This document shows positions 1 to 56,134 of a stretch of 64,000 nucleotides of DNA, one piece after another. The notes under the pieces were generated by a model. The model searched no databases, was not told where the DNA came from, and saw nothing but the letters and a program-made list of their open reading frames with translations. The DNA lies in contig JAVGWX010000006.1 of the NCBI GenBank assembly GCA_036924085.1, positions 36,693,533-36,757,532 on the forward strand. The letters run 5' to 3'. The position numbers and the translations under genes were made by a program. This stretch comes from Ariolimax columbianus. Taxonomy: Eukaryota; Mollusca; Gastropoda; Stylommatophora; Arionidae. How positions within the stretch are numbered: the first letter of the stretch is position 1; the number at the start of each line of letters is the position of its first letter.

Positions 1-20
1 AGGCAGAAATGCAATGTGTT
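1..20 (-). CDS. Amine oxidase coding exon 8 (first 20 bases, cut by window edge)
   Basis: A good acceptor (catcttttccag, AG at 21-22) is followed by 20 bases that, with the trailing G of exon 7, read E-HIAFLP. This continues AMPPKAI as family members do (short loop, then F-x-P-x-L). Short, so less certain than the other exons. Confidence 0.7.
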
Positions 21-3000: not shown

Positions 3001-6000
3001 GCACCGGCCATTACCCCGGGGAAGCAAACCCTTAAAAAATGCAGGGGGAAGCAGACCATGACATAAAATACATGCCAAAGTCGGATGCACTGGACCAACA
3101 AGTGCAAAATAAAAACAGTGCAACACACACCGCCTTGGCGGAAAAGAGAAATAAGACGAACTCAACCAAAACAACAACAAAAATCAATTTTTTTTTAGGT
3201 AGGGTGGGGATGAAACAATTAGTAGAGATGTGCAGGTTTTACCAAGCAGCTGTAATTCTAACTGGGCATTACAGACACATTTCTTTCAATATCTGCAAGT
3301 AACACGTCTCAAAACAACCACGACAAGCCCGGTCTGTCAAATCAAGTGTGATGAGATTTGAACCTGGCACATTGAGATCATAAACCAAGTTCCCAACCCC
3401 CTAGGCCACCTGATTCCCAATTAAAAAGCTAAATAACCAGAAATACAAAACAATGGATTAAAAAAATATGACACCCAGATCAGTTTACCTGCTGTATAGA
3501 CGCAACAGGATCCCCAAGAAGCACGTTATCTTCTCCAACATGCTCTACCAACTTCTGGGATATCTGCTGAGCTCCACCCTAAACAAAATAATGGCATAAA
3601 TTAGGCAGTTAGATCACAGTGAATGATCAAGAACATTAGCCAGCACAGTGACTATCAAGAATGTTAGCCAGCACAGTGAATGATCAAGAATCGTAGCCGG
3701 CACAGTGAATGATCAAGAATTGTAGCCGGCACAGTGAATGATCAAGAATCTTAGCCGGCACAGTGAATGATCAAGAATCTTAGCCGGTCAATGATGTAGT
3801 TAAGTCGATAAAAACGCACATAGATAATGGCATAGTAGACTGGAATTACAGCGTGCCAGGGTTTTAAATCTCAGACGGACAGACACAAAAACCAGGACTG
3901 TGGCTCGTGCGTGGTACAACCACTTCTCCAGTCAATCCAGCTGTAAATGAGTACCTGACATTTGAGTTAGGGAAGGTAAAAACGGCAAGAAAGGGAACTG
4001 GCCACCCCACCTCACATAGACTGCGGCTTTGTAGATGAAGAGTTATCTTCATTCCCGGTAATTGTTGACTTTACCTTTTAGTGACTGCATCAGGTCAAAA
4101 ACAAAATGGTACCTACACAACAAGGCCTTGGTCAAGAACAAAAAACAAACAAAAACAACTAACAAATCAAAACAAAAAAGACATGATGTAAAACGAGCTG
4201 TTAAAAGTTCACCCCCATTACAGAATGTGCCAAGATAGTGTGAGACACCAAATGCCAGTTATGAAAGTAAGTGGGACAAACAAGAAATGGTCAATTTAAC
4301 TGTGCATTCCAAGCAATCACCACTCTCTGGCTAACAAAATATTTCCTGGCATCTAACATTACTTTTATTAAGTTAGCTAAATACATAACACGTCACCTGT
4401 ATTTTCCATTCCTGTGCAGTAAAATCAGTAGCTTCTACAATATTCTTTATTCCACCAGCCATACTGACATACAAAATATAGTAGAGAAAAGAAATCTGGC
4501 TAGGTTCACATCCCAGGATACATCTGACTGCAGCTACAATGGCTGCTCGAGCACCTGAAATATATAGGTAGTACCAAAGATAATATTATCACAGATGATA
4601 AACTACTGCTACTGATTTCTTGGTCAACAACAGCCACAAATTTGGCTTGGCTTTGTTCGTTCTCAATCTCCAGCTACCAAACCCTGAAAAGGGCTTAAGT
4701 AGCAGAATGTAGTCCAGAGAACGGAATGTGTTGTCGTAGTTTACAGCTTGACTGCGATATTTGCACCTTTCAATCCAACACATCTGACTTCAGCAAGCAT
4801 TTTTTGAGTACCGGGTTAGTATTCCCTCTTCGATCCCTTCTCCTTAGCCAGTCTGCCCTGCTGCAGCCTGTTATCCAGGATCACCACATGGAGGTGTAGA
4901 AGGGTCTTGGCAGCTCTGGTTCGCTGGCCCTGATGCTAGCAGTCAGCTATGGGTCGCTGACCACTGCAGCTCATGCACTGCTCAGCATCTTGATCCCAGC
5001 AACAAATTTGACAAGGACATCTCACACAGGAAAGAGGTGGTTGGCTCAGCTTTAATTGCATTGAACCGATACGCCAGTAGATCACTAGCGTCAAGGTCAG
5101 GACTCATACCTTCAACAGCATGGTCATCCCAGCAATGGTATATGGACATGATGTTTGGAGTCTATGCAGATCAGACGCAGAGAGGCTCTGTGCTACCAAA
5201 AGAGCAATTGAGTGAAGTCATAAATATCTCCTTGAGAGAAAACTTCCAAAATGCCGACATCCACCACTAGAGTTCTGGGATGTCATCGACTCAGCATCAA
5301 TGTGAAAGTACTAATGGACCTGCCATGTGGTCCGCATAAATCACAATAGATGGATGAGGAGGGTGTTTTTCTGGTGGCCATACAACGACTTGCGCTGCCG
5401 CTTTTCAGCAAAATGGAGATATGTTCTGTACCACGTCCTTGGACCATCAAGGCACCCATGGGTGAAGGACAGACACGGATTCAAGTCGGATAAACCATTA
5501 AAAACTGCATTATACAAGGCATCAGCTTTTGTGAGTTGAGGTAGCCTGCTCCCTTTCTCTATAGCAGATGCTACAGAAGAGGATGAAGTGTTAGAGGGAT
5601 GAAGTGTTAGAGAGTGTTGAAGAGTTATTAGTATTTGTCAGATGCAGTCACCAGATTTAGCCCTTGCACTACCCACTTACGCATTGCATTAACAAACTCC
5701 AATAAAAGCAATGTACCCATTTACAGAAGGCTGAACTGGCTTTGACGATCTAGACTTTGCTAATGATTGATTCTTCTGTCTCACAACCACAACCAAATGT
5801 AAAACTAAACAAATTATTTTACTGCATGGTGACTGAAATTAGGTCTGAGGGTACACAAAGAAAAGAAACACAGATTCTGAGAAAAAAAAGGACCTACTGA
5901 CAAACAGATTGTACTGAGAGACATTGTATTACAAAAGGTAGATACATTCATATATTATGGTGGCAATATCTCTCTCTCTCATGTAGCATGTCCTTTGTAA

Positions 6001-9000
6001 AACGTCGCTCCCATCACAGTCTGTCTGAAAGAAACTCGTTCCCTTGCCAAAACTCCAGCTTCCGCCACTGTCATACTCAGGCACTCCTGGATATCTTGGT
6101 GCCATCGTCTTCTTGGTCTACCCCTTCCTCTTTTGTCTGGCACCATACCTTCCATCACCGTCCTCTCAAGACCGTTGTGTCTCTTGATGTGACCAAAGTA
6201 TTTGCATTTTCTAGCCAAAATGGAATTGATAAACCAGTTTTCCTCTATGCTCAACTCTTGCCGAATGTCTACATTTGTTCTTTTCTCTGTCCAGGGTATT
6301 CTGAGGATCTTTCTGTAACATTTTGACTCGAAGGATTCGATTCTTTGTCTAGAAGTTTTGGTAATCATCCATGCTTCACAGCCATAAGCTGCCACAGGAA
6401 AAACACAGGCTCTCAAGACTTTTACTTTTATCGTTTTGTTGGTGCCCTGCCATAATTTCTTCAGGCTGTTCAGTCTCTGCATTGCCATAGCTAGTCGTCT
6501 TCTGATTTCTTTCGAGCAGTCACCATTTTTGTCGATTCTGGAGCCCAGATATTCAAAATGTGTAACCTGATCTATTTCCTCACCACCCACTGTAAATTTA
6601 TGCTGACATTGTGTTTTATCGGTGGTCATTATCTTTGTTTTGTTTATGTTTATGAACAGATTTTGATCTTTACTATGTCCATTAACGGCTGAAAGTAGCT
6701 GCTCTAGCCCTTCCGCACTTCTTGATAGTATCACTGTGTCCTCTGCATATCGTAACTCTGGAATCTCGTACCCCCCAATCGTAAATGGGTCGAAACTTTC
6801 AATGTTCTCATCTTCTCGCACATTTCTCATTATACATTCCGCATATATGTTGTACAGATAAGGTGAGAGTATACATCCCTGTCGGACTCCCTTTTGTACT
6901 GCAAACCAATCTGATGTTTGCCCAGATACTCGGACAGCGGCTTGTTGATCTTGGTATAATGTTTCAATGAGATGGACTATATGCAAAGGAAACCCCAATT
7001 CCTTCATGATTCTCCACAGATTTTGATGTTTTACCGTGTCGAAGGCCTTAGTGTAATCAATGAAACATGTGTACAGGTCTACATTAAACTCTCTACATTT
7101 TTCATAGATATTCCTTAAATTGAATATGTGGTCCCGGGTCCCTCTGTCTTTCCTAAAACCTGCCTGGACTACGTGAATTTCAGATTCAAACCTTTTCTCT
7201 ATCCTTCTTAATAGGATTCGCAAGAGTATCTTGCTAGTATGGCTGATCAGTGCGATAGTTCGGTAGTTCGTGCACAGCTTCAGGTTGCCTTTTTTGGAGA
7301 GGGGAATATAAATTGATTTCTTCCATGCTTCTGGCCACTCTGCACTGTGCCATATCTGTTTACACAGCATGTGGTAGACTCGAGCACATGCCTCTCCTCC
7401 TGCTTGTATTAGCTCTGCTGGGATATCATCGCATCCTGGGGACTTTCCCTTTTTCAGGCTTTTAATTGCAGAGCGTACTTCTTCCAATGTTGGTTCAGGT
7501 TCTTTCTCATCCTTTGGTAGGATTGTAACTGAGCGCTTTGTGCTATCTCCATACATGGTTCTGCAGTACTCTCTCCATCTATTCAGTATGTCTTTGGTTT
7601 CTGTTAGTGTGTTATCCTCTTCGTCATTTATGACATGTGGAACCAGACGGAATTCCCTTGTCAGTGTTCTTATTGCCTTGAATGCATCTCTTTCTTTGCC
7701 TTGTTGTTGTAGGTTTTCTATATCCTTACATGTTTCTACTATGTATCTTCTTTTATCTTTTCTTATTTCTCTTCTAATTTTTCTTGCGCAGTTTTTATAT
7801 GCTGTGTTGGTCCCCTTACTTCCCATTTGTTTTAATTGTTGCCTTTCTGCAATGAGTTTCTGTGTTTCGTCTGTTATATAGCTCTGTGTCTTGTGCAATA
7901 TCTTTGGAATCATTTCTTTTGCTGTCGAGATCAAAATCTTCCTTGCGTACGATGTCAACTCCTCAGATGTCATCTTTTCCTGTATAGCAAGCAACGCCTC
8001 AAATTTGTTTTCTACTTTGATGTTGTATTCAGTAGGTATCGCTGATACATCGAAGCGTATTCGCTGGCAACCTTTGTAGATCCTGCGTAGTCTTGTTTGG
8101 TGGCAATATAGACAAGATCAAAGGTACTAATTGTGTGTTGTGTTCTTGTTTGCTCATACTAATTGTGTGTGTGTTCTTGTTTGCTCATACTAATTGTGTG
8201 TGTGTTCTTCTTTCCTCAAACTGATTGTGTGTGTGTTCATGTTTGCTCATTCTGTGTGTGTGTGTTCATGTTTGCTCATTCTGACTGTGTGTGTGTTCAT
8301 GTTTGCTCATTCTGACTGTGTGTGTGTGTTCATGTTTGCTCATTCTGTGTGTTTGTGTTCATGTTTGCTCATTATGTTTGTGTTCATGTTTGCTCATTCT
8401 GTGTGTGTTCATGTTTGCTCATTCTGTGTGTGTTCATGTTTGCTCATTCTGTGTGTGTTCATGTTGGCTCATTCTGTGTGTGTTCATGTTTGCTCATTCT
8501 GACTGTGTGTGTGTGTGTGTTCCTGTTTGCTCATTCTGACTGTGTGTGTGTGTGTTCATGTTTGCTCATTCTGACTGTGTGTGTGTTCATGTTTGCTCAT
8601 TCTGTGTGTGTTGCTGTTTTCTCATTCTGGCTGTGTGTGTGTTCATGTTTGCTCATTCTGGTTGTGTGTTCATGTTTGCTCATTCTGACTGTGTGTGTAT
8701 TCATTTTTGCTCATTCTGTGTGTGTTCATGTTTGCTCATTCTGTGTATGTTCATGTTTTCTCATTCTGTGTGTGTGTCTTCATGTTTGCTCATTCTGACT
8801 GTGTCTGTGTTTATGTTCGCTCATTCTGTGTGTGTTCATGTTTGCTCATTCTGTGCGTATTCATGTTTGCTCATTCTGACTGTGTGTGTGTTCATGTTTG
8901 CTCATTCTGTGTGTGTTCATGTTTGCTCATTCTGACTGTGTGTGTCTTCATGTTTGCTCATTCTGACTGTGTGTGTGTTCATGTTTGCTCATTCTGTGTG

Positions 9001-12000
9001 TTCATATTTGCTCATTCTGTGTGTGTTCATGGTCGCTCATTCTGTGTGTGTTCATGTTTGCTCATTCTGTGCGTATTCATGTTTGCTCATTCTGTGTGTG
9101 TTCATGTTTGCTCATTCTGTGTGTGTTCATATTTGCTCATTCTGTGCGTATTCATGTTTGCTCATTCTGACTGTGTGTGTGTTCATGTTTGTTCATTCTG
9201 TGTGTGTTCATGTTGCTCATTCTGACTGTGTGTATCTTCATGTTTGCTCATTCTGACTGTGTGTGTCTTCATGTTTGCTCATTCTGACTGTGTGTGTGTT
9301 CATGTTCGCTCATTCTGTGTGTGTTCATGTTTGCTCATTCTGTGCGTATTCATGTTTGCTCATTCTGTGTGTTCATGTTTGCTCATTCTGTGTGTGTTCA
9401 TGTTTGCTCATTCTGTGTGTGTTCATATTTGCTCCTTCTGTGCGTATTCATGTTTGCTCATTCTGACTGTGTGTGTGTTCATGTTTGTTCATTCTGTGTG
9501 TGTTGCTGTTTTCTCATTCTGACTGTGTGTGTTCATGTTGCTCATTCTGGTTGTGTGTTCATGTTGCTCATTCTGGTTGTGTGTTCATGTTTGCTCATTC
9601 TGTGTGTGTTCATGTTTGCTCATTCTGTGTGTTCATGTTTGCTCATTCTGTGCATATTCATGTTTGCTCATTCTGACTGTGTGTGTGTTCATGTTTGTTC
9701 ATTCTGTGTGTGTTGTTATTTTCTCATTCTGACTGTGTGTGTTCATGGTGCTCATTCTGGTTGTGTGTTCATGTTGCTCATTCTGGTTGTGTGTTCATGT
9801 TTGTTCATTCTGTGTGTGTTCATGTTTGCTCATTCTGTGTGTGTTCATGTTTGCTCATTCTGTGTGTGTTCATGTTTGCTAATTCTGTGTGTGTTCATGT
9901 TTGCTCATTCTGTGTGTGTTCATGTTTGCTCATTCTGACTGTGTGTGTGTTCATGTTTGCTTATTCTGACTGTGTGTGTGTTCATGTTTGCTTATTCTGA
10001 CTGTGTGTGTGTTCATGTTTGTTCATTCTGTGTGTGTTCATGTTTGTTCATTCTGTGTGTGTTCATGTTTGCTCATTCTGTGTGTGTTCATGTTTGTTTA
10101 TTCTATGTTTGTTCATTCTGTGTGTGTTCATGTTTGGTCATTCTGTGTGTTCACGTTTGTTCATTCTGTGTGTGTTCATATTTGGTCATTCTGTGTGTGT
10201 TCATGTTTGGTCATTCTGTGTGTGTTCATGTTTGCTCATTCTGACTGTGTGTGTGTGTGTATGTTTGCTCATTCTGACTGTGTGTGTGTGTGTGTTCATG
10301 TTTGCTCATTCTGACTGTGTGTGTGTTCATGTTTGCTCATTTTGACTGTGTGTGTGTGTTCATGTTTGCTCATTCTGACTGTGTGTGTGTTCATGTTTGC
10401 TCATTCTGTGTGTGTTCATGTTCGCTCATTCTGTGTGTGTTTATGTTTGCTCATTCTGACTGTGTGTGTGTTCATGTTTACTCATTCTGTGTGTGTTTAT
10501 GTTTGCTCATTCTGACTGTGTGTGTGTTCATGTTTGCTCATTTTGACTGTGTGTGTGTGTTCATGTTTGCTCATTCTGACTGTGTGTGTGTTCATGTTTG
10601 CTCATTCTGTGTGTGTTCATGTTTGCTCATTATGTGTGTGTTCATGTTTGCTCATTCTGTGTGTGTTCGTTTGCTCATTCTGTGTGTTCATGTTTGCTCA
10701 TTCTGTGTGTGTTCATGTTTGCTCATTCTGACTGTGTGTTCATGTTTGCTCATTCTGACTGTGTGTGTGTGTGTTCCTGTTTGCTCATTCTGACTGTGTG
10801 TGTGTGTTCATGTTTGCTCATTCTGACTGTGTGTGTGTTCATGTTTTCTCATTCTAGCTGTGTGTATGTTCATGTTTGTTCATTATGTGTGTGTTCATGT
10901 TTGCTCATTCTGGTTGTGTGTTCATGTTTGCTCATTCTGTGTGTGTTCATGTTTGCTCATTCTGTGTGTTCATGTTTGCTCATTCTGTGTGTGTTCATGT
11001 TTTCTCATTCTGACTGTGTCTGTGTTCATGTTTACTCATTCTGTGTGTTCATGTTTGCTCATTCTGTGTGTGTTCATGTTCGCTCATTCTGTGTGTGTTC
11101 ATGTTTGCTCATTGTGCGTATTCATGTTTGCTCATTCTGTGCGTATTCATGTTTGCTCATTCTGACTGTGTGTGTGTTCATGTTTGCTCATTCTGTGTGT
11201 GTCTTCATGTTTGCTCATTCTGACTGTGTGTGTGTGTTCATGTTTGCTCATTCTGTGTGTGTTCATGTTTGCTCATTCTGTGTGTGTTCATGTTTGCTCA
11301 TTCTGTGTGTGTTCATGTTTGCTCATTCTGTGTGTGTTCATGTTTGCTCATTCTGTGTGTGTTCATGTTTGCTCATTCTGACTGTGTGTGTGTGTGTGTG
11401 TTCCTGTTTGCTCATTCTGACTGTGTGTGTGTGTGTTCATGTTTGCTCATTCTGACTGTGTGTGTGTTCATGTTTGCTCATTCTGTGTGTGTTGCTGTTT
11501 TCTCATTCTGGCTGTGTGTGTGTTCATGTTTGCTCATTCTGGTTGTGTGTTCATGTTTGCTCATTCTGACTGTGTGTGTATTCATTTTTGCTCATTCTGT
11601 GTATGTTCATGTTTTCTCATTCTGTGTGTGTCTCTTCATGTTTGCTCATTCTGACTGTGTCTGTGTTCATGTTCGCTCATTCTGTGTGTGTTCATGTTTG
11701 CTCATTCTGTGCGTATTCATGTTTGCTCATTCTGACTGTGTGTGTGTTCATGTTTGCTCATTCTGTGTGTGTTCATGTTTGCTCATTCTGACTGTGTGTG
11801 TCTTCATGTTTGCTCATTCTGACTGTGTGTGTATTCATGTTTGCTCATTCTGTGTGTTCATGTTTGCTCATTCTGTGTGTGTTCATGGTCGCTCATTCTG
11901 TGTGTGTTCATGTTTGCTCATTCTGTGCGTATTCATGTTTGCTCATTCTGTGTGTGTTCATGTTTGCTCATTCTGTGTGTGTTCATATTTGCTCATTCTG

Positions 12001-15000
12001 TGCGTATTCATGTTTGCTCATTCTGACTGTGTGTGTGTTCATGTTTGTTCATTCTGTGTGTGTTCATGTTGCTCATTCTGGTTGTGTGTTCATGTTTGCT
12101 CATTCTGTGCGTGTTCATGTTTGCTCATTCTGACTGTGTGTATCTTCATGTTTGCTCATTCTGACTGTGTGTGTCTTCATGTTTGCTCATTCTGACTGTG
12201 TGTGTGTTCATGTTCGCTCATTCTGTGTGTGTTCATGTTTGCTCATTCTGTGCGTATTCATGTTTGCTCATTCTGTGTGTTCATGTTTGCTCATTCTGTG
12301 TGTGTTCATGTTTGCTCATTCTGTGTGTGTTCATATTTGCTCCTTCTGTGCGTATTCATGTTCGCTCATTCTGACTGTGTGTGTGTTCATGTTTGTTCAT
12401 TCTGTGTGTGTTGCTGTTTTCTCATTCTGACTGTGTGTGTTCATGTTGCTCATTCTGGTTGTGTGTTCATGTTTGCTCATTCTGTGTGTGTTCATGGTTG
12501 CTCATTCTGTGTGTGTTCATGGTTGCTCATTCTGTGTGTGTTCATGTTTGCTCATTCTGTGCATATTCATGTTTGCTCATTCTGACTGTGTGTGTGTTCA
12601 TGTTTGTTCATTCTGTGTGTGTTGCTGTTTTCTCATTCTGACTGTGTGTGTTCATGTTGCTCATTCTGGTTGTGTGTTCATGTTGCTCATTCTGGTTGTG
12701 TGTTCATGTTTGTTCATTCTGTGTGTGTTCATGTTTGCTCATTCTGTGTGTGTTCATGTTTGCTCATTCTGTGTGTGTTCATGTTTGCTCATTCTGTGTG
12801 TGTTCATGTTTGCTCATTCTGTGTGTGTTCATGTTTGCTCATTCTGTGTGTGTTCATGTTTGCTCATTCTGTGTGTGTTCATGTTTGCTCATTCTGTGTG
12901 TGTTCATGTTTGCTCATTCTGTGTGTGTTCATGTTTGCTCATTCTGACTGTGTGTGTGTTCATGTTTGCTTATTCTGACTGTGTGTGTGTTCATGTTTGC
13001 TTATTCTGACTGTGTGTGTGTTCATGTTTGCTTATTCTGACTGTGTGTGTGTTCATGTTTGTTCATTCTGTGTGTGTTCATGTTTGTTCATTCTGTGTGT
13101 GTTCATGTTTGCTCATTCTGTGTGTGTTCATGTTTGCTCATTCTGTGTGTGTTCATGTTTGTTTATTCTGTGTGTGTTCATGTTTGTTCATTCTGTGTGT
13201 GTTCATGTTTGGTCATTCTGTGTGTTCACGTTTGTTCATTCTGTGTGTGTTCATATTTGGTCATTCTGTGTGTGTTCATGTTTGCTCATTCTGACTGTGT
13301 GTGTGTGTATGTTTGCTCATTCTGACTGTGTGTGTTCATGTTTGCTCATTCTGACTGTGTGTGTGTTCATGTTTGCTCATTTTGACTGTGTGTGTGTGTT
13401 CATGTTTGCTCATTCTGTGTGTGTTCATGTTCGCTCATTCTGTGTGTGTTTATGTTTGCTCATTCTGACTGTGTGTGTGTTCATGTTTACTCATTCTGTG
13501 TGTGTTTATGTTTGTTCATTATATGTGTGTTCATGTTTGTTCATTCTGTGTGTGTTCATGTTTGCTCATTCTGTGTGTGTTCATGTTTGCTCATTATGTG
13601 TGTGTTCATGTTTGCTCATTCTGTGTGTGTTCGTTTGCTCATTCTGTGTGTTCATGTTTGCTCATTCTGTGTGTGTTCATGTTTGCTCATTCTGTGTGTG
13701 TTCATGTTTGCTCATTCTGACTGTGTGTGTGTGTTCCTGTTTGCTCATTCTGACTGTGTGTGTGTGTTCATGTTTGCTCATTCTGACTGTGTGTGTGTTC
13801 ATGTTTTCTCATTCTAGCTGTGTGTATGTTCATGTTTGTTCATTATGTGTGTGTTCATGTTTGCTCATTCTGGTTGTGTGTTCATGTTTGCTCATTCTGT
13901 GTGTGTTCATGTTTGCTCATTCTGTGTGTTCATTCTGTGTGTGTTCATGTTTTCTCATTCTGACTGTGTCTGTGTTCATGTTTGCTCATTCTGTGTGTTC
14001 ATGTTTGCTCATTCTGTGTGTGTTCATGTTCGCTCATTCTGTGTGTGTTCATGTTTGCTCATTGTGCGTATTCATGTTTGCTCATTCTGTGCGTATTCAT
14101 GTTTGCTTATTCTGACTGTGTGTGTGTTCATGTTTGCTCATTCTGTGTGTGTCTTCATGTTTGCTCATTCTGACTGTGTGTGTGTGTTCATGTTTGCTCA
14201 TTCTGTGTGTGTTCATGTTTGCTCATTCTGTGTGTGTTCATGTTTGCTCATTCTGACTGTGTGTGTGTGTGTTCATGTTTGCTCATTCTGACTGTGTGTG
14301 TGTTCATGTTTGCTTATTCTGACTGTGTGTGTGTTCATGTTTGTTCATTCTGTGTGTGTTCATGTTTGTTCATTCTGTGTGTGTTCATGTTTGCTCATTC
14401 TGTGTGTGTTCATGTTTGTTCATTCTGTGTGTGTTCATGTTTGTTTATTCTGTGTGTGTTCATTCTGTGTGTGTTCATGTTTGGTCATTCTGTGTGTTCA
14501 CGTTTGTTCATTCTGTGTGTGTTCATATTTGGTCATTCTGTGTGTGTTCATGTTGCTCATTCTGGTTGTGTGTTCATGTTTGCTCATTCTGTGTGTGTTC
14601 ATGTTCGCTCATTCTGTGTGTGTTCATGTTTGCTCATTCTGTGTGTTCATGTTTGCTCATTCTGTGCATATTCATGTTTGCTCATTCTGACTGTGTGTGT
14701 GTTCATGTTTGTTCATTCTGTGTGTGTTGCTATTTTCTCATTCTGACTGTGTGTGTTCATGGTGCTCATTCTGGTTGTGTGTTCATGTTGCTCATTCTGG
14801 TTGTGTGTTCATGTTTGTTCATTCTGTGTGTGTTCATGTTTGCTCATTCTGTGTGTGTTCATGTTTGCTCATTCTGTGTGTGTTCATGTTTGCTAATTCT
14901 GTGTGTGTTCATGTTTGCTCATTCTGTGTGTGTTCATGTTTGCTCATTCTGACTGTGTGTGTGTTCATGTTTGCTTATTCTGACTGTGTGTGTGTTCATG

Positions 15001-18000
15001 TTTGCTTATTCTGACTGTGTGTGTGTTCATGTTTGTTCATTCTGTGTGTGTTCATGTTTGTTCATTCTGTGTGTGTTCATGTTTGCTCATTCTGTGTGTG
15101 TTCATGTTTGTTTATTCTATGTTTGTTCATTCTGTGTGTGTTCATGTTTGGTCATTCTGTGTGTTCACGTTTGTTCATTCTGTGTGTGTTCATATTTGGT
15201 CATTCTGTGTGTGTTCATGTTTGGTCATTCTGTGTGTGTTCATGTTTGCTCATTCTGACTGTGTGTGTGTGTGTATGTTTGCTCATTCTGACTGTGTGTG
15301 TGTGTGTGTTCATGTTTGCTCATTCTGACTGTGTGTGTGTTCATGTTTGCTCATTTTGACTGTGTGTGTGTGTTCATGTTTGCTCATTCTGACTGTGTGT
15401 GTGTTCATGTTTGCTCATTCTGTGTGTGTTCATGTTCGCTCATTCTGTGTGTGTTTATGTTTGCTCATTCTGACTGTGTGTGTGTTCATGTTTACTCATT
15501 CTGTGTGTGTTTATGTTTGTTCATTATATGTGTGTTCATGTTTGTTCATTCTGTGTGTGTTCATGTTTGCTCATTCTGTGTGTGTTCATGTTTGCTCATT
15601 ATGTGTGTGTTCATGTTTGCTCATTCTGTGTGTGTTCGTTTGCTCATTCTGTGTGTTCATGTTTGCTCATTCTGTGTGTGTTCATGTTTGCTCATTCTGA
15701 CTGTGTGTTCATGTTTGCTCATTCTGACTGTGTGTGTGTGTGTGTTCCTGTTTGCTCATTCTGACTGTGTGTGTGTGTTCATGTTTGCTCATTCTGACTG
15801 TGTGTGTGTTCATGTTTTCTCATTCTAGCTGTGTGTATGTTCATGTTTGTTCATTATGTGTGTGTTCATGTTTGCTCATTCTGGTTGTGTGTTCATGTTT
15901 GCTCATTCTGTGTGTGTTCATGTTTGCTCATTCTGTGTGTTCATGTTTGCTCATTCTGTGTGTGTTCATGTTTTCTCATTCTGACTGTGTCTGTGTTCAT
16001 GTTTACTCATTCTGTGTGTTCATGTTTGCTCATTCTGTGTGTGTTCATGTTCGCTCATTCTGTGTGTGTTCATGTTTGCTCATTGTGCGTATTCATGTTT
16101 GCTCATTCTGTGCGTATTCATGTTTGCTCATTCTGACTGTGTGTGTGTTCATGTTTGCTCATTCTGACTGTGTGTGTGTGTTCATGTTTGCTCATTCTGT
16201 GTGTTTGTGTTCATGTTTGCTCATTATGTTTGTGTTCATGTTTGCTCATTCTGTGTGTGTTCATGTTTGCTCATTCTGTGTGTGTTCATGTTTGCTCATT
16301 CTGTGTGTGTTCATGTTTGCTCATTCTGTGTGTGTTCATGTTTGCTCATTCTGACTGTGTGTGTGTGTGTGTGTTCCTGTTTGCTCATTCTGACTGTGTG
16401 TGTGTGTGTTCATGTTTGCTCATTCTGACTGTGTGTGTGTTCATGTTTGCTCATTCTGTGTGTGTTGCTGTTTTCTCATTCTGGCTGTGTGTGTGTTCAT
16501 GTTTGCTCATTCTGGTTGTGTGTTCATGTTTGCTCATTCTGACTGTGTGTGTATTCATTTTTGCTCATTCTGTGTGTGTTCATGTTTGCTCATTCTGTGT
16601 ATGTTCATGTTTTCTCATTCTGTGTGTGTCTCTTCATGTTTGCTCATTCTGACTGTGTCTGTGTTCATGTTCGCTCATTCTGTGTGTGTTCATGTTTGCT
16701 CATTCTGTGCGTATTCATGTTTGCTCATTCTGACTGTGTGTGTGTTCATGTTTGCTCATTCTGTGTGTGTTCATGTTTGCTCATTCTGACTGTGTGTGTC
16801 TTCATGTTTGCTCATTCTGACTGTGTGTGTATTCATGTTTGCTCATTCTGTGTGTTCATGTTTGCTCATTCTGTGTGTGTTCATGGTCGCTCATTCTGTG
16901 TGTGTTCATGTTTGCTCATTCTGTGCGTATTCATGTTTGCTCATTCTGTGTGTGTTCATGTTTGCTCATTCTGTGTGTGTTCATATTTGCTCATTCTGTG
17001 CGTATTCATGTTTGCTCATTCTGACTGTGTGTGTGTTCATGTTTGTTCATTCTGTGTGTGTTCATGTTGCTCATTCTGGTTGTGTGTTCATGTTTGCTCA
17101 TTCTGTGCGTGTTCATGTTTGCTCATTCTGACTGTGTGTATCTTCATGTTTGCTCATTCTGACTGTGTGTGTCTTCATGTTTGCTCATTCTGACTGTGTG
17201 TGTGTTCATGTTCGCTCATTCTGTGTGTGTTCATGTTTGCTCATTCTGTGCGTATTCATGTTTGCTCATTCTGTGTGTTCATGTTTGCTCATTCTGTGTG
17301 TGTTCATATTTGCTCCTTCTGTGCGTATTCATGTTCGCTCATTCTGACTGTGTGTGTGTTCATGTTTGTTCATTCTGTGTGTGTTGCTGTTTTCTCATTC
17401 TGACTGTGTGTGTTCATGTTGCTCATTCTGGTTGTGTGTTCATGTTTGCTCATTCTGGTTGTGTGTTCATGTTTGCTCATTCTGTGTGTGTTCATGGTTG
17501 CTCATTCTGTGTGTGTTCATGTTTGCTCATTCTGACTGTGTGTGTGTTCATGTTTGTTCATTCTGTGTGTGTTGCTGTTTTCTCATTCTGACTGTGTGTG
17601 TTCATGTTGCTCATTCTGGTTGTGTGTTCATGTTGCTCATTCTGGTTGTGTGTTCATGTTTGTTCATTCTGTGTGTGTTCATGTTTGCTCATTCTGTGTG
17701 TGTTCATGTTTGCTCATTCTGTGTGTGTTCATGTTTGCTCATTCTGTGTGTGTTCATGTTTGCTCATTCTGTGTGTGTTCATGTTTGCTCATTCTGTGTG
17801 TGTTCATGTTTGCTCATTCTGTGTGTGTTCATGTTTGCTCATTCTGTGTGTGTTCATGTTTGCTCATTCTGTGTGTGTTCATGTTTGCTCATTCTGACTG
17901 TGTGTGTGTTCATGTTTGCTTATTCTGACTGTGTGTGTGTTCATGTTTGCTTATTCTGACTGTGTGTGTGTTCATGTTTGTTCATTCTGTGTGTGTTCAT

Positions 18001-21000
18001 GTTTGTTCATTCTGTGTGTGTTCATGTTTGCTCATTCTGTGTGTGTTCATGTTTGCTCATTCTGTGTGTGTTCATGTTTGTTTATTCTGTGTGTGTTCAT
18101 GTTTGTTCATTCTGTGTGTGTTCATGTTTGGTCATTCTGTGTGTTCACGTTTGTTCATTCTGTGTGTGTTCATATTTGGTCATTCTGTGTGTGTTCATGT
18201 TTGCTCATTCTGACTGTGTGTGTGTGTATGTTTGCTCATTCTGACTGTGTGTGTTCATGTTTGCTCATTCTGACTGTGTGTGTGTTCATGTTTGCTCATT
18301 TTGACTGTGTGTGTGTGTTCATGTTTGCTCATTCTGTGTGTGTTCATGTTCGCTCATTCTGTGTGTGTTTATGTTTGCTCATTCTGACTGTGTGTGTGTT
18401 CATGTTTACTCATTATGTGTGTGTTTATGTTTGTTCATTATATGTGTGTTCATGTTTGTTCATTCTGTGTGTGTTCATGTTTGCTCATTCTGTGTGTGTT
18501 CATGTTTGCTCATTATGTGTGTGTTCATGTTTGCTCATTCTGTGTGTGTTCGTTTGCTCATTCTGTGTGTTCATGTTTGCTCATTCTGTGTGTGTTCATG
18601 TTTGCTCATTCTGTGTGTGTTCATGTTTGCTCATTCTGACTGTGTGTGTGTGTTCCTGTTTGCTCATTCTGACTGTGTGTGTGTGTTCATGTTTGCTCAT
18701 TCTGACTGTGTGTGTGTTCATGTTTTCTCATTCTAGCTGTGTGTATGTTCATGTTTGTTCATTATGTGTGTGTTCATGTTTGCTCATTCTGGTTGTGTGT
18801 TCATGTTTGCTCATTCTGTGTGTGTTCATGTTTGCTCATTCTGTGTGTTCATTCTGTGTGTGTTCATGTTTTCTCATTCTGACTGTGTCTGTGTTCATGT
18901 TTGCTCATTCTGTGTGTTCATGTTTGCTCATTCTGTGTGTGTTCATGTTTGCTCATTCTGTGTGTGTTCATGTTTGCTCATTGTGCGTATTCATGTTTGC
19001 TCATTCTGTGCGTATTCATGTTTGCTCATTCTGACTGTGTGTGTGTTCATGTTTGCTCATTCTGTGTGTGTCTTCATGTTTGCTCATTCTGACTGTGTGT
19101 GTGTGTTCATGTTTGCTCATTCTGTGTGTGTTCATGTTTGCTCATTCTGTGTGTGTTCATGTTTGCTCATTCTGTGTGTGTTCATGTTTGCTCATTCTGT
19201 GTGTGTTCATGTTTGCTCATTCTGTGTGTGTTCATGTTTGTTCATTCTGTGTGTGTTCATGTTTGCTCATTCTGTGTGTGTTCATGTTTGTTCATTCTGT
19301 GTGTGTTCATGTTTGTTTATTCTGTGTGTGTTCATTCTGTGTGTGTTCATGTTTGGTCATTCTGTGTGTTCACGTTTGTTCATTCTGTGTGTGTTCATAT
19401 TTGGTCATTCTGTGTGTGTTCATGTTTGGTCATTCTGTGTGTGTTCATGTTTGCTCATTCTGACTGTGTGTGTGTGTGTATGTTTGCTCATTCTGACTGT
19501 GTGTGTTCATGTTTGCTCATTCTGACTGTGTGTGTGTTCATGTTTGCTCATTTTGACTGTGTGTGTGTGTTCATGTTTGCTCATTCTGACTGTGTGTGTG
19601 TTCATGTTTGCTCATTCTGTGTGTGTTCATGTTCGCTCATTCTGTGTGTGTTTATGTTTGCTCATTCTGACTGTGTGTGTGTTCATGTTTACTCATTCTG
19701 TGTGTGTTTATGTTTGTTCATTATATGTGTGTTCATGTTTGCTCATTCTGTGTGTGTTCATGTTTGCTCATTCTGTGTGTGTTCATGTTTGCTCATTATG
19801 TGTGTGTTCATGTTTGCTCATTCTGTGTGTGTTCGTTTGCTCATTCTGTGTGTTCATGTTTGCTCATTCTGTGTGTGTTCATGTTTGCTCATTCTGTGTG
19901 TGTTCATGTTTGCTCATTCTGTGTGTGTTCATGTTTGCTCATTCTGACTGTGTGTGTGTGTTCCTGTTTGCTCATTCTGACTGTGTGTGTGTGTTCATGT
20001 TTGCTCATTCTGACTGTGTGTGTGTTCATGTTTTCTCATTCTAGCTGTGTGTATGTTCATGTTTGTTCATTATGTGTGTGTTCATGTTTGCTCATTCTGG
20101 TTGTGTGTTCATGTTTGCTCATTCTGTGTGTGTTCATGTTTGCTCATTCTGTGTGTTCATTCTGTGTGTGTTCATGTTTTCTCATTCTGACTGTGTCTGT
20201 GTTCATGTTTGCTCATTCTGTGTGTTCATGTTTGCTCATTCTGTGTGTGTTCATGTTCGCTCATTCTGTGTGTGTTCATGTTTGCTCATTGTGCGTATTC
20301 ATGTTTGCTCATTCTGTGCGTATTCATGTTTGCTCATTCTGACTGTGTGTGTGTTCATGTTTGCTCATTCTGTGTGTGTCTTCATGTTTGCTCATTCTGA
20401 CTGTGTGTGTGTGTTCATGTTTGCTCATTCTGTGTGTGTTCATGTTTGCTCATTCTGTGTGTGTTCATGTTTGCTCATTCTGTGTGTGTTCATGTTTGCT
20501 CATTCTGTGTGTGTTCATGTTTGCTCATTCTGACTGTGTGTGTGTGTGTTCATGTTTGCTCATTCTGACTGTGTGTGTGTGTTCATGTTTGCTCATTCTG
20601 ACTGTGTGTGTGTTCATGTTTGCTCATTCTGTGTGTTGCTGTTTTCTCATTCTGGCTGTGTGTGTGTTCATGTTTGTTCATTATGTGTGTGTTCATGTTT
20701 GCTCATTCTGGTTGTGTGTTCATGTTTGCTCATTCTGTGTGTGTTCATGTTTGCTCATTCTGTGTGTGTTCATGTTTGCTCATTCTGTGTGTTCATGTTT
20801 GCTCATTCTGTGTGTGTTCATGTTCGCTCATTCTGTGTGTATTCATGTTTGCTCATTCTGTGCGTATTCATGTTTGCTCATTCTGACTGTGTGTGTGTTC
20901 ATGTTTGCTCATTCTGTGTGTGTTAGTGTTTGCTCATTCTGACTGTGTGTGTCTTCATGTTTGCTCATTCTGACTGTGTGTGTGTTCATGTTTGCTCATT

Positions 21001-24000
21001 CTGTGTGTGTTCATGTTCGCTCATTCTGTGTGTGTTCATGTTTGCTCATTCTGTGTGTGTTCATGTTTGCTCATTCTGACTGTGTGTATTCTTGTTCGTT
21101 CATTCTGTGTGTGTTCATGTTGCTCATTCTGGTTGTGTGTTCATGTTTGCTCATTCTGTATGTGTTCATGTTTGCTCATTCTGTGTGTGTTCATGTTTGC
21201 TCATTCTGTGTGTGTTCATGTTTGCTCATTCTGTGTGTGTTCATGTTTGCTCATTCTGTGTGTGTTCATGTTTGCTCATTCTGTGTGTGTTCATGTTCGC
21301 TCATTCTTTGTGTGTTCATGTTCGCTCATTCTGTGTGTGTTCATGTTTGCTCATTCTGTGTGTTCATGTTTGCTCATTCTGTGTGTTCATGTTTGCTCAT
21401 TCTGTGTGTGTTCATGTTTGCTCATTCTGTGTGTTCATGTTTGCTCATTCTGTGTGTTCATATTTGCTCATTCTGTGCATATTCATGTTTGCTCATTCTG
21501 ACTGTGTGTGTGTTCATGTTTGTTCATTCTGTGTGTGTTGCTGTTTTCTCATTCTGACTGTGTGTGTTCATGTTTGCTCATTCTGTGTGTGTTCATGTTG
21601 CTCATTCTGGTTGTGTGTTCATGTTTGCTCATTCTGTGTGTGTTTTCATGTTTGCTCATTCTGTGTGTGTTCATGTTTGCTCATTCTGTGTGTGTTCATG
21701 TTTGCTCATTCTGTGTGTGTTCATGTTTGCTCATTCTGTGTGTGTTCATGTTTGCTCATTCTGTGTGTGTTCATGTTTGTTCATTCTGTGTGTGTTCATG
21801 TTTGTTCATTCTGTGTGTGTTCATGTTTGTTCATTCTGTGTGTGTTCATGTTTGTTCATTCTGTGTGTGTTCATGTTTGTTCATTCTGTGTGTGTTCATG
21901 TTTGTTCATTCTGTGTGTGTTCATGTTCGTTCATTCTGTGTGTGTTCATGTTTGTTCTTTCTGTGTGTGTTCATGTTTGTTCATTCTGTGTGTGTTCATG
22001 TTTGTTCATTCTGTGTGTGTTCATGTTTGTTCATTCTGTGTTTGTTCATTCTGTGTGTGTTCATGTTTGTTCATTCTGTGTGTGTTCATTCTGTGTGTGT
22101 TCATGTTTGTTCATTCTGTGTGTGTTCATGTTTGTTCATTCTGTGTGTGTTCATGTTTGTTCATTCTGTGTGTGTTCATATTTGGTCATTCTGTGTGTGT
22201 TTATGTTTGGTCATTCTGTGTGTCTTCATGTTTGCTCATTCTGACTGTGTGTGTGTTCATGTTTGCTCATTCTGTGTGTGTTCATGTTTGCTCATTCTGT
22301 GTGTGTTCATGTTCGCTCATTCTGTGTGTGTTCATGTTTGCTCATTCTGTGCGTATTCATGTTTGCTCATTCTGTGTGTTCATGTTTGCTCATTCTGTGT
22401 GTGTTCATGTTTGCTCATTCTGTGTGTGTTCATGTTTGCTCATTCTGTGTGTGTTCATGTTTGCTCATTCTGACTGTGTGTGTTCATGTTTGCTCATTCT
22501 GACTGTGTATTCAATTAACCCTGAAATGGATTGCTAATTGTCCTGATAATGACCTCATGTAGCCCTGAGATGAACTTTTATTCAATTTAGTGTTTAACCA
22601 TGTTACCAGAGCTTTAAAGTCATTCTCAAAGTGTTGTCTTTGGACCCTTGGCAGCCTCTGAGACTCTATCAGTGGGTCTCCAAAGACATAACTTTGATAA
22701 TAAAACTAAGACATTACTTATAAAAAAATATAAGACAATGGCAGTCATTGCAATTAGTTTTATGTTTTTGAGAAAAAAAATATATTTCTCTTATTAAAAA
22801 AAGTTAGTTGCCCATCACAAACAAAGATGGTGACAGCATCAGACAGATTTTGTCTTGATGATGTAACTTGTGCTGTATTTGGATTATAGTGAAAAAGATT
22901 ATAGTGAAAAAGAAGCTACGCTGGTTATCAACCTCACTCTCTGGTCCCAAGCTACCTTGGGCCAGTGGCAAGACATAAGTCAAGACGACTGAAGGTAATT
23001 CCAAATGCAGGCACTCTGGTCCCACCTCCTTGAGACCAGGGGTCAATTGAAACCTGCGAGGCTCAAACCCACGTTGTTTCCATTCATTGCTTTGAGAGAT
23101 GAGTGCCTTGCCTCTCTTATAAACATGTTATGTAATACATTTATTATTATTTTTAAATAAAATAATTAATAAATAAAAACTATAAACAATTTCTCAGATT
23201 TAGTTTCTAATACCACCTGAGAGAGAGAGCCGAGTTAACAGTGGTTTCCCAGCAAAACGATCTGGGTTTGGTCAGTTGGTGCAGGATTTTTTTATGATCG
23301 CAAAAAATCAAAATCCTGAGATAGACCCAGCCTCAAAATCGGATATCAGAACAATCTTGGAAGTAAAGGTAGTCGGTGTGATGATGACCTCATCACCCCT
23401 AGCATGTCGTTAGTCAAGATAATGTTGACCTAACACCATATCCCCAATATGTCTCACAGGTGTGTAAACAGAATCTAAAAATACCACCTGTGGTAGGTAC
23501 CTGGTTGTGGAAAGAAGAGCACCACTGTAACCTTCTCAGCATATTGTAAAAGATAACTAAAAGACAACAGTTGTGCATACAGCTAGTAACATCATCATGT
23601 GAAACCACTACTACAAATGCATGGTAGCATGCTTTCTGTAAGTGAGCTGTTATGGTGAGCCCCTATGCTTGACATGCAGCAAAACAGGCAAACTAAAATG
23701 AATATTAATACGGTTGGTAGTAGTAGACTCTTTTCAGTCATTTCTGACTATAGAATTATGCAACCTTGGATAGCAACTCTGAGTATTTCTTTTCCTTGTG
23801 GCATTGTCTTTTCACTTCTGTGTTGCAAGAGCTTATTTTCGCCCAGTCTAAGTGGCCCTTCAGGTAGCATCCCCACTTTGATCGGTCTGACTGCAGCTAT
23901 GTCTTCCCCAGATTTCAGATACGTATCAAATGCCTTCATGTCCTGCTTATACGTACGTGTCTGTGAACTTCATCTGTTCTTTTATCACACACCAGTTGCC

Positions 24001-27000
24001 CATAGAGAATATCTTTGATGCAATGAACATGACCAAGCCATCGCAGTCTTCATTCCCTAAGGAGAGTATGTATACGTGGGAGGAGACTGGTGAGAGAATG
24101 TGCCTCTGCATTCATCACTCTGTCTTTCCCTGAGACCCTAAGAATGAATCTCATGTGCCATAAGTGAACGGTTAAAATAAGTAAATAAAATCTTCATAGA
24201 CAAGGCTCTTTGGGGTGGGGTTCTGATTAGTTTTTAGGTGTATAAAGAATTGCTAAAACCATATGAACTCTCACCTCACCTTTAGAATAGAGAGTTTTGT
24301 TCATATAAGCTCCCAAACTCATGGCATCCCATTCTGCAGCCTGAGGGTGGGAATATGGATCTCCCACAGACAACTGAGCCTGAAACCGATCTAACTGTGA
24401 ACACAGAATATCTACAAAAGTGACCAAACCTGGTTAGAACACACAGCAAACACGAGAGCAATTAGTGTACAAAAAAAACTATTCTTCAACAGGTAAGTTT
24501 TAGTATACATTAGAAACATAAAATCAATTGACACACAAAATGGATTGCTTTTAAAAAAATCAATCTTACCAACATCAGAAAAGCAAAGCACAACTGAGGT
24601 GCAGAATGTAATATGGAGATATTTCGTGTAAGATATTTTGTGTACAAGTTTAAGAACTACAAACAAAGGGCCAAAAACAGAGCAGTGAATGAGCTGAGAG
24701 TAGCCAGCAGCCCGACATGTTGTGTTGAACCTCACCGGTGAGTCCAGAGCTGACTGTATAGTACAATTCTGGCCCAGAAACCCCTTCAGCGTGTGCAGCA
24801 TATAAGGTCAAGATTGGACACGTGAGTGTCGGTTGTTTTATCTTTCTGCACAGTACATTTTCTCCTACCCTCGGAGATCAAACATTCTTCAGCAATGGAG
24901 GAGTCGCTGGTGGTTCTACGCCATGCCATGAGAGAGTTTTTGAAGCACTTTTTGTGCCCATCGACCAGAAGACGTAGGCCTACTTTCTGCTCGCCACACA
25001 TTAGTTCTTTGGGGATGCAATTGACTAGCATACGCATGACATGACCAGCTCACCTGATGTGGGTCTTCTGCAATAGTGTGTTGATGTTGTACATTTTAGC
25101 CTTCGAGAGAATCTCAGTGTTTATTACCCTATCCTGCCATTATACTCTCAACAAGTAGCCTGCGACTCATAGCTTGCTACTAGCATAAGGGTCAACAAAT
25201 CAAAGCAGACCAAGACCTTATTTCGTCTCTAAAATCAGGCTTGACCTGTGCTGCCTGGCTAAGAGAATATGGATTGAAGATGGAAGGTAAACCCGGTCCT
25301 AAAATTTCTGTACTGTGTCGGATGTGTTGGTTCAATAGGCACAGGTATCACAGTTTTGCTGTAAACTACGATACTACATAATAAAATGTCCTTTGCAGGA
25401 CGTATGCTGAAGAAGAAGAAGAAAGATAAGAACTATAAACTTACTTTGTTTGAAGTATTTGCTTTTAGATTATGTAAATGTTTTCACTGAAGGCATACAT
25501 TTGAATTTTATCTTATTTTCATATATGCTGGCAGTCATAATGGGTATTTCATTATGTAAAATGTGATTTCAGTAAGGAGACCCAAATTTATAAAATTATA
25601 GAAAATATGGGTTTGACCTGCAGCAGCTCAATTTTAGACCGTTGTTCAAGAACCAATGAGGTCCAGGGTACAGAAAACACAATGCACTGAAGGTGGGTTG
25701 TATCCTCAATTGATAGTTTGATAAAAAAATGTATGCAAAAAACATATTTTAAACCATAAAACTTATAAAAATAAATCACATCTGTGGCGGCAATTACAGA
25801 AACAAAATTGAACCTTTAAACAGGGGGCAAAGATGCCGCTGTGAATGAGCTGACAGCAGCCAGCAACTCATAGCTGGCTGCTTGCATCTGGGCCAGTGAC
25901 ACAAAAAAGACCCAGACCCTATTCCACCTCTCCAAGTGGTGGCCCTAGAAATAGACTGCAGTCATGCATTCATGTGTGCACTAACTGCAACCGATAACAC
26001 AATCAGAAGGTATGACTTCAATGCACATTAATTTTACTTCGACATTTGACAAAGAATTGCATTACTCTCTCTGGGACAGAAAAGTAAACCAACTTAGTAA
26101 TGTCATCAAGAATTTATATTCAAATACCTCGAGTGCTAATCATATCAATCGCAGAACAGGAGATTAGGAAATATTTTTTTAGTCAGAGAGTGGTGAATAC
26201 TTGGAATGCATTGCCACAGGAGGTAATGGAGGCAGGAACAATTAATGCATTTAAGAATAAATTGGATGCGCATAGCTTTTAGAGCAAGGTAATGTAAATG
26301 AAACTGGTTGTATACAGACTCTGTAGAGTCTTCTAAACCAGTATAAAGACATTAAGTTAAGAACAGGAGTTTGGTTTAACACTATGGATGACGTAAGACA
26401 GGGCTGCCTACTATCAGCCACCCTGTTCAACCTATTACTAGAAAAAAACTATGACAGCTGTTCTGAGTAGTCATCATGGAACAGTAACTATAGGTGAATG
26501 CATTTTTCCAAACCTATGCTTGGCTGATGACATAAATGTTCGTGCCAGAAATTTAAAAGATCTGCAAGCTCTTGAGACAGTTACACAATTCAAACACCTG
26601 GGCTCTATAATTGGAGTAGAGGGAAACAAGGCAGAACTAAATACAAGGATTGCACAGGCAGTAATAATTCTCACCTTGATGAAGCTACTACGGAAGGGCA
26701 AGAACTTACAAGTTAAGACTAATATCACATTAAGGCAAATGTTGATCTTCTCCATATACCTATATGAGTGTGAAGCATGGACAGATATAGAATGCAGATT
26801 TAGAGCATAAAGTTCAAGCAATGGTTTAAACTTCAATGGTAAGGTCATGTGATACAATCAAATTGACGGCCTAATACAATACTCAGGGGCATGGTTCTTG
26901 GCAAAAAAGAGGTCACCTTAAGATGTGCTGGACAGTTAATGTTCAAAGAATCAAGGCCTGCTAAAAATGTATCGGATCTTAATTTTTCCTGCGATAACAA

Positions 27001-55672: not shown

Positions 55673-56134
55673 TGAAATGTTGAACACATGTGAGTTATAT
55701 AATTCAAGCTACCTATTTTAGACATTGTAACAGTTACAGCCACTGGGGATTAATGTTAGAAATACAATAGTAATATCTTTTTTATTTCTATGTTTTTTAC
55801 AGGCTCAAAATGGCATTAATATTGAATGAAATTTGTTTTTTTAACCAGAAAAATTTGAACACACTAGATTATCAGGACGCGCATTTTTTATTGTATGATT
55901 TATTGTTTTAAGAGCCCTAATTGTTGGAAATTATTGCTCTGCAAGACGTTCAACGAGTGTCAACAATATATCCATCATATTTTTGTAGATTTCTCTGAAA
56001 TATTAGACAAAGTATAGCACAAGGCTCTATGGGACATTTTGCCCCAATACAGAAAATAGAATCAACTTACCAAATGTATTCAAGAATTTATTTGCAAATA
56101 ATAGTGAGGTTCTCATCAATGGCAAAACTGAAGA

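What the first reader, a model, noticed from the sequence alone, without database searches (positions are those of the whole stretch)
8125..22511. A 14.4-kb minisatellite fills most of one intron of an apparently intact gene
The array lies between amine oxidase exons 4 (24280-24394) and 5 (4397-4554), which are in phase with each other. About 500 tandem units of 25/31 bp in a single intron is extreme, and it must be transcribed and spliced out each time the gene is expressed. Sequence directly shows the array and both flanking exons; intactness of the gene beyond the left edge is unknown.
Basis: partly seen in the sequence, partly recalled or inferred. Interest (0 to 1): 0.8.

Follow-up and report, generated by a model that had tools for sequence, protein, structure and literature searches.

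The report
Long minisatellite inside a snail intron
A land snail or slug carries about 540 tandem copies of a short repeat in one intron of an otherwise complete amine oxidase gene; this is real, but long arrays of this kind turn up readily in this genome and similar ones are known inside human genes.

Summary
Confirmed: 8125-22511 (14,387 bp) is one uninterrupted minisatellite of about 540 units, mostly 25 or 31 bp. It fills 73% of intron 4 (4555-24279) of a minus-strand, MAO-like flavin amine oxidase. The array grew by unit gain and loss and by multi-kb block duplication: 9717-14620 and 14731-19500 match at 99.5%. A 5'-truncated LINE with a 12-bp target-site duplication sits 15 bp from its left edge. 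"Extreme" does not hold in this genome: in 20 random 10-kb windows tandem arrays cover 18.9% of bases, and one window is wholly a 24-bp array. Human intronic VNTRs of 25-30 bp reach 10 to 30+ kb; an abalone intron holds a 27-bp one. Best reading: a passively tolerated intronic minisatellite without strong splice-site matches on the gene's sense strand, as is usual for units sampled here. Splicing, length variation and function are untested; partial assembly inflation is possible.

The parts
8125..22511 (-). minisatellite array, about 540 units of mainly 25 and 31 bp, T/G-rich on +, A/C-rich on the gene's sense strand
9717..14620 (.). copy 1 of a ~4.9-kb block duplicated inside the array
   Evidence: 4702 matches, 25 mismatches, 15 gaps against 14731-19500
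14731..19500 (.). copy 2 of the ~4.9-kb block
   Evidence: longest exact shared stretch 789 bp at offset 5014
4555..24279 (-). intron 4 of the amine oxidase gene, 19,725 bp
35602..35719 (-). amine oxidase exon 1 (start codon and GxGxxG motif)
32325..32412 (-). exon 2
29113..29287 (-). exon 3
24280..24394 (-). exon 4 (upstream of the array in the gene)
4397..4554 (-). exon 5 (downstream of the array in the gene)
3489..3578 (-). exon 6
1940..2027 (-). exon 7
1..20 (-). first 20 bases of exon 8, which runs to coordinate -80 (the base left of 1 is counted as 0); exons 9-11 lie at -1866..-1678, -3866..-3679 and -16364..-16064
5970..8097 (-). LINE insertion, 5'-truncated, endonuclease part missing; its reverse transcriptase frame is open (stop-to-stop frame 5982-8117, which runs 20 bases past the LINE); lies between the array and exon 5
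5958..5969 (-). target-site duplication ATATTGCCACCA at the LINE's 3' side
   Evidence: 0 of 2000 shuffles of a 60-base flank gave a 12-bp match
8098..8109 (-). target-site duplication ATATTGCCACCA at the LINE's 5' side, 15 bp from the array
3615..3787 (.). smaller minisatellite (29 bp x 6) in intron 5 of the same gene

Best explanation
This is an ordinary but large minisatellite that grew inside intron 4 of an intact MAO-like flavin amine oxidase gene, without a close second copy, in what is most likely a stylommatophoran land snail or slug. Shown: the array, the complete 11-exon open frame around it, its unit-level and block-level repeat structure, and a sampled genome background rich in such arrays. 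Inferred: growth by slippage and unequal exchange, of single units and of blocks up to ~5 kb; and tolerance because the array adds little but length. On the gene's sense strand the 25-bp consensus unit contains no GT dinucleotide, and the whole array holds no GTRAG donor and no pyrimidine-tract acceptor by my patterns, so the exon 4 donor and exon 5 acceptor should still pair. This silence looks like chance, not selection, because 85 of 92 minisatellite unit orientations sampled here are also free of GTRAG.
For: Gene: exons 1-7 in phase with GT-AG sites; the 277-residue product aligns to MAO-A (2bxr, E 3.7e-37) without a break at the exon 4/5 junction; mollusc proteins P0148 (Lottia) and P0158 (Mya) run through that junction; exons 8-11 in the left flank complete a 536-residue frame with one terminal stop, aligning over residues 2-478 to MAO-A (1o5w, E 1.2e-78). 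Own-genome search with the 277-residue query: 9 matches, 7 of them these exons and 2 weak ones (34% and 61% identity) elsewhere. Array history: 12,854 of 14,387 bases lie in exact matches of 100 bp or more to another part of the array; a 4.9-kb block repeated at 99.47%; longest run of identical units 9 (two places) against at most 7 in 200 shuffles. Background: 37,876 of 200,000 sampled bases in arrays of period 7 or more. Sense-strand motifs: GTRAG 0 per kb in the array against 1.73 per kb in 14,991 bases made of introns 1-3, 5, 6 and the part of intron 4 right of the array; 85 of 92 unit orientations from 46 arrays in the random windows are GTRAG-free. Without array, LINE and one target-site copy, intron 4 would be about 3.2 kb, like introns 1-3 (3.0-4.7 kb).
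Against: No RNA evidence that exons 4 and 5 are joined in this species. The nearest relative protein (P0146, 166 aa, 78% identical) stops two residues past the exon 4/5 junction, so it hardly tests it. No data on length variation among individuals. The motif counts are crude and do not exclude regulation by CA-binding proteins. Array density is lower close to this gene than in the random windows: 2,628 of 49,613 window bases outside the main array and 4,237 of 40,000 flank bases, so locally this array stands out.
Confidence: 0.8

Rival explanations
1. The array is real but its length is inflated by the assembly: two haplotypes' versions of one block were laid one after the other, giving the two ~4.9-kb copies. 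The true array would then be nearer 9-10 kb.
For: Copies 9717-14620 and 14731-19500 differ at only 25 of 4727 aligned bases, a distance that could be that of two alleles.
Against: They also differ by 15 gaps adding up to 220 bp, and other blocks repeat at other offsets (about 1.3, 2.0, 2.9, 7.9 and 9.2 kb) and, where aligned, at 98.2-99.1% identity, as serial duplication would give. No N in the window.
Confidence: 0.12
2. The array has a job in the gene: the pre-mRNA carries about 490 short CA runs, which could gather hnRNP-L-like proteins and tune exon 5 splicing or slow the polymerase.
For: 489 runs of three or more CA, 74 ACACACA per kb against 0.07 per kb in the other intronic sequence compared; 3 of 3 sense-strand pieces of 150 bases fold worse than their shuffles on average (z 2.58, 1.20, 2.04); length of the ABCA7 intronic VNTR correlates with exon 19 skipping and with lower expression (PMC5954066, abstract) and long CACNA1C alleles with lower expression in fibroblasts (PMC13131567, abstract and section 14 read). 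Binding of hnRNP L to CA repeats is recalled; papers on it were seen only in a listing.
Against: The CA richness belongs to one unit sequence, so it is in effect a single draw; conservation across species could not be tested; long arrays also occur elsewhere in this genome.
Confidence: 0.06
3. The gene is decaying and the array marks a gene that is no longer spliced.
For: Only that no RNA was seen.
Against: Eleven in-phase exons, GT-AG at all ten introns, no stop before the end and no second close copy; a dead gene would not be expected to keep a 536-codon frame open (inference; no test of selection was made).
Confidence: 0.02

Closest known systems
CACNA1C intronic 30-bp VNTR (TRACT), human; PMC13131567 (abstract and sections 12 and 14 read)
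   Same: 30-bp unit, 3-30+ kb, inside an intron of a working gene, unit variants differing by one base, growth inferred from runs of perfect repeats
   Different: other unit sequence, other host; here no allele series, and block duplication of ~5 kb is prominent
ABCA7 intronic VNTR, human; PMC5954066 (abstract), PMC6857246 (passages)
   Same: 25-bp unit, more than 10,000 bp and about 400 units in expanded alleles, intronic
   Different: GC-rich unit; length there is linked to exon skipping and lower expression, untested here
27-bp minisatellite in intron 3 of abalone TSSK1-like; PMC6905558 (three passages)
   Same: gastropod, intronic, unit of similar length; legend as held reads 62 repeats
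   Different: several times shorter; reported to differ among individuals
Satellite-filled introns of Drosophila kl-3 and kl-5; PMC6508621 (abstract)
   Same: tandem repeats within introns that are transcribed with the gene
   Different: megabases of simple satellites, over 99% of the loci, with two RNA-binding proteins needed for expression; here 19.7 kb

Membership tests
intronic minisatellite / VNTR | head-to-tail units of roughly 6-100 bp | tested here: met
intronic minisatellite / VNTR | lies wholly within one intron of a protein-coding gene | tested here: met
   (gene model from sequence; no RNA)
intronic minisatellite / VNTR | unit number varies among individuals | not testable with these tools
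   one assembly only; internal block duplications are suggestive
gigantic satellite introns (Drosophila kl-3/kl-5 type) | intron of megabase size, nearly all satellite | tested here: not met
   intron 4 is 19,725 bp, 73% array
gigantic satellite introns (Drosophila kl-3/kl-5 type) | needs special RNA-binding proteins for expression | not testable with these tools
   no RNA or genetics
flavin amine oxidase (PF01593), MAO-like | Amino_oxidase domain and near full-length similarity to MAO | tested here: met
   PF01593 3.6e-26 for exons 1-7; MAO-A 1.2e-78 over residues 2-478 of 536
MAO A/B proper | cysteine in the SGGCYTAYFPPG stretch that binds FAD covalently (role recalled) | tested here: not met
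   the aligned stretch of this protein reads SWGGPVSYITSG, without cysteine

The most novel reading that the evidence does not exclude
This is a genome in which roughly a sixth of the DNA is tandem array, mostly minisatellite, and arrays of 10 kb or more sit routinely inside introns of working genes, so that gene length is set largely by minisatellite turnover; some arrays, such as this CA-rich one, have become length-dependent regulators of splicing or expression.
Probability: 0.1. Interest if true: 0.55.

Novelty: new member of a known kind. Interest (0 to 1): 0.3.

Why it matters
As a single locus it adds a long, cleanly delimited intronic minisatellite in a complete gene without a close second copy, with a readable duplication history; it is a good test case for whether intron length made of tandem repeats costs anything. 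The wider point is the background: tandem arrays cover 18.9% of a small random sample of this genome (14.7% without one all-array window). That is near the 21% reported as remarkable for the killifish Nothobranchius furzeri (PMC2688266, abstract section read) and above the roughly 3% given for human VNTRs (PMC10373352, start of abstract in the listing). A survey of 14 aquatic libraries, one of them a gastropod, gave 0.35-10.34% for near-perfect minisatellites (PMC3504011, passages). Methods and thresholds behind these figures differ. If the share holds genome-wide, this animal would be a useful system for minisatellite growth in genes.

Tried and rejected
Selection for splice silence: the array has no GTRAG donor on the gene's sense strand, but 85 of 92 minisatellite unit orientations (46 arrays, units of 15-60 bases) from the random windows are also GTRAG-free and 18 of 92 lack GT altogether, so I do not claim selection.

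Protein-coding array: stop-to-stop frames of up to 485 codons are open on the + strand, but unit lengths of 25 and 31 shift the frame at each unit; rejected as a by-product of composition.

LINE as source of the array: rejected. The LINE has its own target-site duplication and lies 15 bp outside the array, and no array core occurs in the window outside the array.

More diverged array ends: the first three units differ visibly from the rest, but means over stretches of 45 units (1.24-1.98 edits) do not rise at the ends; the highest is at 14229.

Structured RNA or known RNA gene: no Rfam family at gathering score and no tRNA in the window. Sense RNA of three 150-base pieces does not fold better than shuffles (z 2.58, 1.20, 2.04). 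One of three antisense pieces did (z -3.09), two did not (0.19, -0.69); not pursued.

Unit elsewhere: an exact 37-base pattern had no match in viral or prokaryote contigs, as expected. In the own genome a 401-base piece gave 91 matches at 64-75% identity, but the window's own array was not among them, so that search passes over such repeats and uniqueness cannot be stated. The exact-pattern search of the own genome did not complete.

Genome sampling: 60 random windows were drawn, 20 were obtained. The contig ranges I drew from were lower bounds taken from earlier hits and not all contigs were included, so the sample is not uniform. One of the 20 (L032) has 515 N.
Full report
What was checked. 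The finding describes 8125-22511 as a 14.4-kb minisatellite filling most of one intron of an amine oxidase gene. TRF finds one array at 8321-22508 with 541 copies, and my segmentation of 8125-22511 gives 540 units of 95 kinds, 288 of 25 bp and 103 of 31 bp. The window has no N. The 18-bp core occurs 503 times in the array with up to three substitutions and nowhere else in the window. AT skew is near -0.70 through the array: the + strand is T/G-rich, the gene's sense strand A/C-rich. Only 2 of 46 minisatellite units from the random windows are as skewed.

The gene. On the minus strand, exons 1-7 lie at 35602-35719, 32325-32412, 29113-29287, 24280-24394, 4397-4554, 3489-3578 and 1940-2027. Their introns are GT-AG and all junctions are in phase. 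The 277-residue product matches PF01593 and MAO-A (2bxr, which I recall as human) at E 3.7e-37 over residues 2-275. I fetched 40 kb to the left, compared it with five relatives and read exons 8-11 at -80..20, -1866..-1678, -3866..-3679 and -16364..-16064, the base left of 1 being 0. The frame is open for 536 codons and ends in one stop; the gene spans 52,084 bp from start to stop codon, and the product aligns to MAO-A (1o5w, recalled as rat) at 1.2e-78 over residues 2-478. The own genome gave 9 matches to the 277-residue query: the seven exons and two weak ones at C6:19.48-19.50 Mb, so no recent second copy was seen. Intron lengths are 3189, 3037, 4718, 19725, 818, 1461, 1919, 1597, 1812 and 12197 bp.

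The host. The 430-residue frame at 51140-52429 has 25 relatives at E up to 0.001. The 14 rows that carry an organism name are all molluscs, best Arion vulgaris (69%), Bradybaena similaris (65%) and Candidula unifasciata (63%), which I recall as stylommatophorans. The assembly is 2.29 Gb in 401 contigs, with the window at C6:36,693,533-36,757,532. The species was not identified.

How the array grew. Of its 14,387 bases, 12,854 lie in exact matches of at least 100 bp to another part of the array; the longest is 789 bp at offset 5014. Blocks 9717-14620 and 14731-19500 align with 4702 matches, 25 mismatches and 15 gaps (220 bp); 8265-9720 matches 11250-12760 at 99.1% and 16117-17700 at 98.5%; two further pairs match at 98.2% and 98.4%. 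At the unit level, lag 187 gives 82 of 353 identical pairs (0.23) against 0.075 expected; 200 shuffles did not exceed 0.123 over the lags tested in them (every third lag from 1 to 259, while the data were scanned at lags 1-399). The longest runs of identical units are 9, in two places, against at most 7 in 200 shuffles. This fits serial duplication of single units and of multi-kb blocks. The ~5-kb repeat could also be two haplotypes laid end to end by the assembler; this cannot be excluded here.

The LINE beside it. Between the array and exon 5 lies a LINE in the gene's orientation. Its reverse transcriptase frame (712 residues stop to stop, 5982-8117) is open and matches PF00078. It aligns to residues 256-962 of a 963-residue relative, P0027, whose listed domains include an endonuclease-type one, so the front part is missing. 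It is bounded by a 12-bp duplication, ATATTGCCACCA, at 5958-5969 and 8098-8109; none of 2000 shuffles of a 60-base flank gave a 12-bp match. So it entered sequence 15 bp outside the array, and is neither its source nor inside it. Its clade was not tested; its short 3' end reminds me of RTE elements (recall).

Does the array disturb the gene? On the sense strand the array holds no GTRAG and no pyrimidine-tract acceptor by my patterns, and 0.42 AATAAA per kb. The 14,991 bases compared (introns 1-3, 5, 6 and the part of intron 4 right of the array) have 1.73, 0.13 and 0.73 per kb. So it adds length but no strong competing splice sites. As 85 of 92 unit orientations from random windows are GTRAG-free, this is the usual state and no sign of selection. 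The sense RNA has 489 CA runs and is weakly folded in the 3 pieces tested. A role through CA-binding proteins such as hnRNP L is possible but untested; hnRNP L papers were seen only in a search listing.

Is it extreme? In 20 random 10-kb windows (20 of 60 drawn), arrays of period 7 or more cover 37,876 of 200,000 bases; without the all-array window L023 it is 27,876 of 190,000. Of 101 arrays, 48 are at least 200 bp, 16 at least 500 bp and 6 at least 1 kb; apart from L023 the longest is 1,951 bp. So one array of at least 10 kb was met in the sample, and arrays of 1-2 kb are the next size. Around this gene density is lower: 2,628 of 49,613 window bases outside the main array, and 4,237 of 40,000 flank bases. 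Other introns of the gene hold smaller arrays: 29 bp x 6 in intron 5, 22 bp x 18 in intron 8, 33 bp x 31 in intron 10. In print, CACNA1C has a 30-bp intronic VNTR of 3-30+ kb (PMC13131567: abstract and sections 12 and 14 read). ABCA7 has a 25-bp intronic VNTR of more than 10,000 bp or about 400 units (PMC6857246 passages; PMC5954066 abstract). Abalone TSSK1-like has a 27-bp intronic minisatellite, 62 repeats as the legend reads (PMC6905558 passages). A search for 'minisatellite', 'intron' and 'mollusc' gave 11 papers, of which I opened only the abalone one; I saw no mollusc intron array of this size there, but did not search further. In three land-snail or slug genome papers (passages only) I saw one relevant figure, 0.48% satellite and 0.02% simple repeat by RepeatMasker-type annotation in Meghimatium bilineatum (PMC10770140), which does not count minisatellites by TRF and, taken as it stands, does not suggest a snail-wide excess.

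Verdict. Splicing across it, length variation and any effect on the gene remain untested.

Noticed in passing
G000 random windows L022-L041: Tandem arrays of period 7 or more cover 18.9% of 200 kb of random sequence from this genome; the 10-kb window L023 (C3:38,272,254-38,282,253) is one 24-bp array from end to end. The genome-wide share deserves a proper survey.
   Followed up: partly
56130-57019: Second sizeable minisatellite in the window: 43-bp unit, about 21 copies, 94% matches.
   Followed up: no
51140-52429 (+): 430-residue open frame related to mollusc UPF0489/C5orf22-like proteins; neighbour gene on the opposite strand to the amine oxidase.
   Followed up: partly
window -3866..-3679 (exon 10, left flank): The amine oxidase lacks a cysteine where MAO-A has the one that I recall as its covalent FAD link, so its flavin may be bound non-covalently.
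   Followed up: no
27402-27770 (+) and 33655-33954 (-): Frames that look to me like decayed mariner-type transposase pieces, in introns 3 and 1 of the gene; Pfam gave no match at E 0.01.
   Followed up: partly
5970-8097 (-): 5'-truncated LINE with open reverse transcriptase frame and 12-bp target-site duplication, so probably a young insertion.
   Followed up: yes
G000:C6:19,481,723-19,496,383: Weak matches (61% and 34%) to the amine oxidase: a more distant relative on the same contig, about 17 Mb away.
   Followed up: no
G000:C11:83,471,428-83,478,195: Four pairs of matches to the array piece with equal scores lie exactly 4,100 bp apart, so another T/G-rich array seems to carry a recent ~4.1-kb internal duplication too.
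   Followed up: no
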